Both the position numbers and the translations under genes were made by a program. 64,000 bases of DNA from positions 33,241 through 97,240 of the IMG/VR virus record IMGVR_UViG_3300028800_000064; one strand, given 5' to 3'. The stretch's first letter is position 1. Each line of letters begins with the position of its first letter. The DNA comes from a virus. Below, in pieces: positions 47,227-48,258 of this stretch. The notes beneath the pieces were generated by a model, which saw only the letters and a list, made by a program, of their open reading frames with translations, was not told the origin of the DNA and ran no database searches.

Positions 47227-48258
47227 ATGAACACGAAGATGATCGCGCTTCACAAGACCTTCGATAAAGATGCTGCAGGAAAACGCAACCTTGTAGTCCA
47301 CATTTCAGATGGTGTTAATCACGAGTTCCTCCCCCCAAAGAAATTTGAGAACTTTATTGCGAAGCTGCCTGCCACGACGCTGATTCGCGCGACCGCAGTA
47401 AACGCTACGGACGGAGTGCTACTAGACCTTGCGGAGCGCGGTAACAAAATTGTGTACGCCTACTGGCATACCACTGGACTCGAATCTGGCCTGGACCCGG
47501 CAGACCTTGTATCCCAGTACGCATTGCTGCCCGAGGAGATGTTTCGTACGTTCAAGCCCCGCGCGGATATCGCGAATTTGAAGCAGGTTCTGTCGCTGCG
47601 GAACGCTATCGTTCAGTTTGCTGGAGACGCCACACGGCGCTTGAAGCAATCGGGTCGCGACATCGGTGATCCTGAAATGGAGATCGCGGAAGATGCGATA
47701 ACATCTATCCGCAAGGGTATCGTGCTGGAAGATGGGACCCCGCTGGATAAGCACGTACAAAAGTTGGCGGAGCGGATTCCGGAGTGCCGGTTGTTCAAAC
47801 AAATTACACACATCCAGGACTCATGGATCATGGCAGCTTCGTTTGTGGCGTACTCAGGTGGCTTCGACCGCTTCGAGGACGTTGCTTCCCTGTGGCACTA
47901 TTTTGGGCAGCATGTAGGAGCCGATGGCCGCGCGCCGCGCCGTCGCAAGGGTACCAACATCGACTGGAATCCGCGCGGGCGCACCATTTTGTATCAGCTC
48001 GGCTCCACGATCATCAAGAATCGTAAGAACCCATGGCGCGACTTTTTCGATCAAGCTCGGGCCATCGAGATCGCCGCGCACGACGTGAAGCATCCGGGAT
48101 GCAAAACCAAAGACGGGCACTGCACCATGATGGCATCTCGAAAGATGGTCAAGGAAATCGTCAAGCGTTTCTTCCTGGCCGAAAAGGGAATTCAGTACCA
48201 AGAGGATCACAACCCACTAAGCCACCAGGACAGTGAACTCCAACTTGTCAATGCTTAG
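47227..48258 (+). CDS. Tas-like protein (IS110/Nop-domain family, nuclease residues degenerate)
   Basis: The 343-aa protein has two parts. Residues 1-145 follow the RuvC-like fold of IS110 transposases but with catalytic acids lost: N59 in VNATDG replaces the Glu of E-x-T-G, D114 remains in RADIANL, and N117 sits at the next Asp. Residues 187-320 follow the Tnp_20/Nop-like region (ITHIQDSWIMAASFVAYSGG, LWHYFGQHVGADG, NPRGRTILYQLGSTIIK, ending HPGC..HC..MASRKMVKEI); Asp233 stands where IS110 has its Ser. Flanking arrays with dual 9-nt spacers match TIGR-Tas. It probably binds array RNA and guided DNA without cutting. Confidence 0.82.
   Translation: MNTKMIALHKTFDKDAAGKRNLVVHISDGVNHEFLPPKKFENFIAKLPATTLIRATAVNATDGVLLDLAERGNKIVYAYWHTTGLESGLDPADLVSQYALLPEEMFRTFKPRADIANLKQVLSLRNAIVQFAGDATRRLKQSGRDIGDPEMEIAEDAITSIRKGIVLEDGTPLDKHVQKLAERIPECRLFKQITHIQDSWIMAASFVAYSGGFDRFEDVASLWHYFGQHVGADGRAPRRRKGTNIDWNPRGRTILYQLGSTIIKNRKNPWRDFFDQARAIEIAAHDVKHPGCKTKDGHCTMMASRKMVKEIVKRFFLAEKGIQYQEDHNPLSHQDSELQLVNA

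What the first reader, a model, noticed from the sequence alone, without database searches (positions are those of the whole stretch)
47227..48258. Tas-like protein appears to have lost its nuclease residues
Against the IS110 DEDD set, the region aligned with E-x-T-G reads N59-A-T-D, only D114 is kept near the third/fourth Asp, and the first Asp is not visible. The IS110 catalytic Ser position reads D233. The alignment was made by eye. A binding-only effector could block transcription or replication of rivals instead of cutting.
Basis: inference. Interest (0 to 1): 0.72.

Follow-up and report, generated by a model that had tools for sequence, protein, structure and literature searches.

The report
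Phage RNA-guided protein without cutting residues
A phage carries a TIGR-Tas RNA-guided system whose effector keeps its guide- and DNA-binding part but lacks the nuclease's key metal-binding residues, so it probably blocks DNA instead of cutting it; close relatives show that its guides are swapped in place while everything around them is conserved.

Summary
The ORF at 47227-48258 (343 aa) is a TIGR-Tas effector: its Nop part matches NCBIfam TIGR_Tas (E 1.9e-23) and TasR 9mty (VIA Z 17.6). Residues 1-82 model as an RNase H/RuvC-like fold (low confidence, Z about 7). The first catalytic Asp falls on H9 in the structural matches, and the strand-4 Glu position (V58) has no acidic residue near it. 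Two phage homologues found here (46% identity) also have H9 and V58, and the domain is under purifying selection. So two of four catalytic positions are gone. Inactive TasR is already published for CPR bacteria; this is a phage variant. The locus has 14 stem-loop guide units (97.6% of stem cells paired, strong covariation), one overlapping the tas stop codon, plus an unknown partner gene (48655-49149). Tas, partner and arrays recur in two phages that otherwise share almost nothing with this one. Between those two the guide scaffolds are 94% identical while the 9-nt spacers are near random, so guides are replaced in place. A binding-only, RNA-guided role is best supported; targets are unknown.

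The parts
47227..48258 (+). tas gene, 343 aa: RuvC-like N-domain (res 1-82, nt 47227-47472), linker (83-110), coiled coil (111-195) and Nop domain (196-320), C-tail overlapped by a guide unit
   Evidence: ORF; NCBIfam NF052498 E 1.9e-23 over 173-318; PDB 9mty E 2.5e-11; fold matches; homologues 46% id
47227..47472 (+). RuvC-like N-domain, catalytic positions replaced (H9, V58)
   Evidence: strand/helix order b-b-b-a-b-a-b in two models; VIA matches to IS621, ISCro4, retroviral integrases, MOC1, YqgF over 1-82; dN/dS 0.14 between relatives
47155..47204 (+). stem-loop guide unit 1, upstream of tas: stem-CCA-N9-TGCAAACCA-N9-TG-stem
48213..48262 (+). guide unit 2, overlaps the 3' end of tas; the tas stop codon TAG (48256-48258) lies in its 3' stem
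   Evidence: similar arrangement in L073/L074
48266..48639 (+). first subarray, 7 stem-loop guide units with loop repeat TGAAAACCA
48655..49149 (+). partner gene (P0002, 164 aa), unknown family, conserved with tas in two otherwise unrelated phages
   Evidence: no Pfam/PHROG/NCBIfam/PADLOC/PDB family
49157..49454 (+). second subarray, 5 stem-loop guide units; loop repeat drifts in the last three (TGAAACCCA, TGAAGCCCA, TGCAGCCCA); followed by a T run
   Evidence: sequence

Best explanation
The protein is a TIGR-Tas effector with a catalytically dead RuvC-like N-domain, encoded by a phage in a cassette with 14 stem-loop guide units and a second conserved gene. Inferred mechanism: the array is transcribed and cut into hairpin tigRNAs; a Tas dimer binds the CCA/TG (box C/D) motifs through its Nop domains; the two 9-nt spacers pair with opposite strands of an 18-bp target, opening and bending it; no cut follows, because the site that should hold D/E/D/D lacks the first Asp and the Glu. 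The effect would be steric: blocking transcription, replication or another protein at the target, possibly with the N-domain recruiting the partner protein (48655-49149) as the dead RuvC domain of Nop5 recruits fibrillarin. Shown here: family, array, covariation, missing residues, conservation of the dead domain and of the two-gene cassette. Inferred: DNA binding, absence of cleavage, blocking, the partner interaction.
For: Tas identity. RNase H-like N-domain with the first Asp at residue 9: range starts of IS621 4->2 (D11), HIV IN 56->1 (D64), PFV IN 120->1 (D128), MOC1 109->3 (D115), MVV IN 60->3 (D66) all give residue 9 if no gap lies before it; residue 9 is His. V58 at the Glu: ungapped comparison with TasR A42-E43-N44...G57 (sequence). 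H9, V58 and TAVxATD invariant in homologues; dN/dS 0.14 in the N-domain versus 0.06-0.11 in coiled coil and Nop, so the domain is kept without the site. Essential role of the equivalent residues: PMC12045711 (D11A), PMC11208158 (D11, E60, D102, D105). Array: 14 units against 0.19 expected, all with stems, 0 on the other strand, 0.0 in shuffles with stems, 97.6% of cells paired with 32 double changes, 0/500 shuffles. Cassette.
Against: The N-domain model is weak (pLDDT about 41-63 in one model, 49-72 in the other; best Z 7.3, below the level where a match is safe; a non-RNase-H protein, TolR, ties). Profile comparison finds no sequence link to the TasR RuvC. VIA returns ranges, not residue pairs, so H9 and V58 rest on short ungapped inference. 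Conserved H9, D62 and H81 could form another kind of site. No target was found, and no binding was shown.
Confidence: 0.68

Rival explanations
1. The N-domain is a nuclease that uses another set of residues (for example H9, D62, H81 at the edge of the sheet), so the protein still cuts DNA or RNA by different chemistry.
For: H9, D62 and H81 are invariant in the three homologues and lie at or just after strands 1, 4 and 5 in the models, near the old active site.
Against: I know of no RNase H-fold nuclease that works with this set; only three sequences, so invariance is weak; these could be structural or nucleic-acid contacts.
Confidence: 0.1
2. The N-domain is a recruitment platform: the Tas RNP brings the partner protein (P0002) to DNA or RNA, as Nop5 brings fibrillarin, and the partner does the work.
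For: P0002 homologues accompany tas in all three phages and in no other TIGR locus fetched; the Nop5 N-domain is a dead RuvC fold that recruits fibrillarin (PMC12045711); the dead domain is under purifying selection.
Against: P0002 has no detectable enzyme family and its fold was not predicted; co-occurrence in three phages may reflect shared inheritance of the cassette; no interaction was tested.
Confidence: 0.25
3. Degenerate pseudogene: the protein is decaying and the array is a remnant.
For: Missing catalytic residues; drifting loop repeats in the last three units; loss of the GxG motif at the start of the Nop domain.
Against: dN/dS 0.06-0.14 in relatives, 46% identity over the full domains across otherwise unrelated phages, stems kept by compensatory change.
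Confidence: 0.03
4. It is an IS110-type RNA-guided transposase.
For: Pfam Transposase_20 weakly matched (15.5 bits, cut-off 21.3); IS621 among the fold matches.
Against: No DEDD_Tnp_IS110 match; no catalytic Ser; a guide array instead of a bridge RNA; the Tas model matches far better.
Confidence: 0.01

Closest known systems
TasR with predicted inactive RuvC, CPR bacteria (Faure et al. 2025, PMC12045711)
   Same: Nop-domain effector, RuvC-like N-domain without catalytic residues, stem-loop guide array
   Different: Here in phages, 343-364 aa; the alignment shows no large insertion in the Nop domain, whereas the CPR clade has large ones; a second conserved gene and guide units inside the tas gene are not described in the main text. 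The CPR sequences could not be compared directly.
TaTasR (PDB 9mty)
   Same: Domain order RuvC-like, coiled coil, Nop; Nop domain aligns with Z 17.6
   Different: TaTasR has D11, E43, D87/E88, D90 and cuts; this has H9 and V58; TaTasR uses a dual-repeat array
TasA (solo Nop)
   Same: Guide-binding without a nuclease; same RNA motifs; stem-loop arrays also known with TasA
   Different: TasA has no N-terminal domain; here one is present and conserved
Nop5/Nop56 of box C/D snoRNPs
   Same: Dead RuvC-like N-domain before coiled coil and Nop domain; box C/D-like guides
   Different: No fibrillarin or L7Ae homologue identified at the locus; guides form arrays with two 9-nt spacers
IS110/IS621 recombinase
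   Same: RNase H-like domain joined to a coiled coil and a Nop-like RNA-binding domain
   Different: DEDD and Ser needed for recombination are absent; no bridge RNA

Membership tests
TIGR-Tas system | Tas protein with Nop domain | tested here: met
   NF052498 E 1.9e-23, though 83.5 bits is under the curated cut-off of 100; 9mty Z 17.6; profile match E 5e-18 to TasR
TIGR-Tas system | Adjacent array of units with two 8-12 nt spacers flanked by box C (CCA) and box D (TG) | tested here: met
   14 units, spacers 9 nt; expected 0.19
TIGR-Tas system | Array processed to tigRNAs that bind Tas and direct DNA binding | not testable with these tools
   needs RNA-seq and binding assays
TIGR stem-loop array type | Palindromic sequences in place of edge repeats | tested here: met
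   97.6% of stem cells paired, 32 cells changed on both sides, 0/500 shuffles
Active TasR | Four acidic residues in the RuvC domain | tested here: not met
   first Asp position is H9, Glu position is V58, in three homologues; placed by fold ranges and spacing, not by residue-level superposition
Inactive-RuvC TasR (CPR clade) | RuvC-like domain without catalytic residues, stem array | tested here: met
   fold of the N-domain is low confidence
[quoted passage not shown]
   Nop domain aligns with TasA/TasR relatives without large insertions
TasA | Nop domain alone | tested here: not met
   about 110 conserved residues precede the coiled coil
IS110 recombinase | DEDD_Tnp_IS110 domain (PF01548) and catalytic Ser | tested here: not met
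   no PF01548 match; non-Ser at that position
Box C/D snoRNP Nop5 | Partner fibrillarin and L7Ae, K-turn guide RNA | not tested
   no dedicated search was run; P0002 has no detected family

The most novel reading that the evidence does not exclude
This phage cassette (dead-RuvC Tas, the unknown 164-aa partner and stem-loop arrays) has a dedicated way of rewriting each 9-nt half-guide in place while stems, loop repeats and gene order stay fixed, giving a binding-only RNA-guided system that is re-aimed without CRISPR-like insertion of new units and without a reverse transcriptase.
Probability: 0.2. Interest if true: 0.88.

Novelty: new variant of a known kind. Interest (0 to 1): 0.6.

Why it matters
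It adds phage-borne effectors with a dead but conserved RuvC-like domain to TIGR-Tas, supporting a role beyond cutting and making a recruitment role (as in box C/D RNPs) testable. The syntenic arrays of two related phages bear on an open question named in the discovery paper, how TIGR arrays gain new guides: here spacers change in place, far faster than synonymous sites, while each unit's own stem stays recognisable.

Tried and rejected
Sequence aligners (MAFFT in several modes, pairwise BLOSUM) could not align the N-domain to TasR reliably; profile comparison of the N-domain with TasR also failed, so placement rests on folds and spacing. A by-eye match of D90 to TasR D90 looked good until relatives showed it is not conserved. 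DGR-type diversification was rejected for the records held: no reverse transcriptase. Self-targeting and mutual targeting are not supported: hits at 2-3 mismatches equal re-paired controls. No close relative in plasmids, phage records (only hits to the Nop part, TasA-like where read) or 398 genomes of one archaeal phylum (searched with the active TasR). Host not determined.

Full report
Observation. The ORF at 47227-48258 is real, with GGAG about 9 bases before its ATG. It is a TIGR-Tas effector: NCBIfam TIGR_Tas_endo E 1.9e-23 over residues 173-318, under the curated cut-off; best solved relative TaTasR 9mty, E 2.5e-11 by sequence, 4.6e-20 with a family profile, VIA Z 17.6 over 115-327. Pfam sees only a weak IS110 C-terminal match and there is no IS110 N-terminal domain.

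N-domain. Folded without any alignment, residues 1-82 give strand 5-14, strand 20-27, strand 32-35, helix 37-45, strand 52-56, helix 62-70, strand 74-78; a second model that used relatives only for the Nop part gives the same order (Nop pLDDT mostly 85-94, N-domain about 41-63). VIA matches for residues 1-82 are ISCro4 and IS621 recombinases (Z 7.1 and 6.9, rmsd 2.7, 72 aligned), retroviral integrase cores, MOC1 and YqgF, all RNase H-like, with TolR as an unrelated tie at 7.3. These Z values are moderate and alone would not prove the fold; the same position before a coiled coil and Nop domain in TasR, IS621 and Nop5 supports it.

Catalytic positions. In the matches the start of the aligned range puts the first catalytic Asp on residue 9 (IS621 D11, HIV D64, PFV D128, MOC1 D115, MVV D66; IS621 numbering from PMC11208158, MOC1 D115 from the entry title, the others from general knowledge). 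Residue 9 is His. The Glu of strand 4 falls in 55-58 from the IS621 range and at V58 by ungapped comparison with TasR (A42-E43-N44 ... G57-A-K59 against A57-V58-N59 ... G72-N-K74; TasR sequence). L024, an IMG/VR contig, encodes a TasR with the expected D16, E49, D89/E90, D95, which shows what an intact site looks like. In IS621 mutation of D11, E60, D102 or D105 abolishes recombination (PMC11208158) and in TasR D11A abolishes cleavage (PMC12045711). D114 is in the first coiled-coil helix and is not a catalytic candidate; D90/D93 are, but the relatives have P and E there.

Relatives. A DNA scan for two neighbouring units with loop repeat TGAAAACCA brought in two phage contigs, IMGVR_UViG_3300032069_000147 and IMGVR_UViG_3300035099_000117, whose Tas proteins match over residues 3-333 at 46% identity, E about 1e-94. 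H9, V58, TAVxATD, LAERGxK, WHxTG and PRxDIA are shared. Between these two, dN/dS is 0.14 in the N-domain, 0.11 in the coiled coil, 0.06 in the Nop domain, but 1.10 in the C-terminal tail. So an N-domain without the RuvC site is being maintained.

Array. Fourteen units CCA-N9-TG-N4-CCA-N9-TG occur in the window, all on + and all in 47164-49445; 0.19 are expected; none lies elsewhere in the 97,240-base record. All have an outer stem; 97.6% of stem cells are paired, 32 cells changed on both sides against a shuffled mean of 9.9. This is the stem-loop array type of the discovery paper, with a kept loop repeat. One unit lies just before tas, and one overlaps its end so that the stop codon sits in the 3' stem. 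In the two relatives one unit lies inside the tas coding end and the next contains the stop codon TAA in its loop repeat. This explains the unconstrained protein tail.

Cassette. ORF-against-ORF comparison of this record with each relative leaves tas (E about 1e-104), the gene at 48655-49149 (E 3e-15 and 2e-13), an endolysin-like gene and weaker matches, and there is no DNA similarity. The 164-aa protein P0002 has homologues only in these phages among all loci fetched and no family.

Guide turnover. The two relatives are 84% identical in DNA where they align. Over ten gap-free syntenic units the stems are 92-93% identical, loop repeats 98%, boxes 93-95%, other sequence 85%, but spacer A 39% and spacer B 26%; without one kept unit the spacers are 26% identical, not different from random (P = 0.79), against scaffold P = 5e-51 with all units. 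Synonymous sites differ at only 19-37% in the main domains. So the spacers change much faster than neutral sites and in place. No reverse transcriptase is present. In TasA contigs with dual-repeat arrays, half-spacers are instead shared and shuffled. Whether this is targeted rewriting or strong diversifying selection cannot be told from two genomes.

Targets. With the rule spacer A followed by the reverse complement of spacer B (derived here from the cut geometry in PMC12045711), no target in the own record or in the two relatives exceeds re-paired controls. So neither self-regulation nor attack on these relatives is supported.

Conclusion. The class is published; the phage form, its partner gene, guide units inside the effector gene and in-place guide replacement are additions that I did not find in the discovery paper's main text; its supplements were not read.

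Noticed in passing
L073:5988-7188 against L074 (same region): Syntenic stem-loop arrays keep stems, loops and order, while nearly all 9-nt spacers are replaced in place to random identity; one unit at 6381 keeps 16 of 18 bases.
   Followed up: yes
window 48655-49149; L073:6511-6987; L074:6506-6982: Unknown gene between the subarrays, conserved with tas in otherwise unrelated phages; candidate new TIGR partner.
   Followed up: partly
window 48213-48262; L073:5988-6102: Guide units overlap the 3' coding end of tas; stop codons lie in a stem or loop repeat; the protein tail has dN/dS 1.1 between relatives.
   Followed up: yes
window 35439-35754: Permuted tmRNA (RF04321, 81 bits) in a phage genome.
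   Followed up: no
window 41168-42010 (-): Tyrosine integrase gene (PF00589, E 5.8e-14), about 5 kb from tas; none found in the two related contigs.
   Followed up: partly
L051, L054, L058, L061, L063: Close TasA phages share a pool of half-spacers in different combinations and order in dual-repeat arrays.
   Followed up: partly
L003:2309-3819 (Mycobacterium phage ConceptII): TasA-like gene directly followed by, and overlapping, a gene annotated Cas4 exonuclease; 75 mycobacteriophage records match, several annotated transposase.
   Followed up: no
NCBIfam NF052498: The model named RNA-guided endonuclease scores TasA proteins without a nuclease domain above its cut-off, so annotations will call non-nucleases endonucleases.
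   Followed up: no
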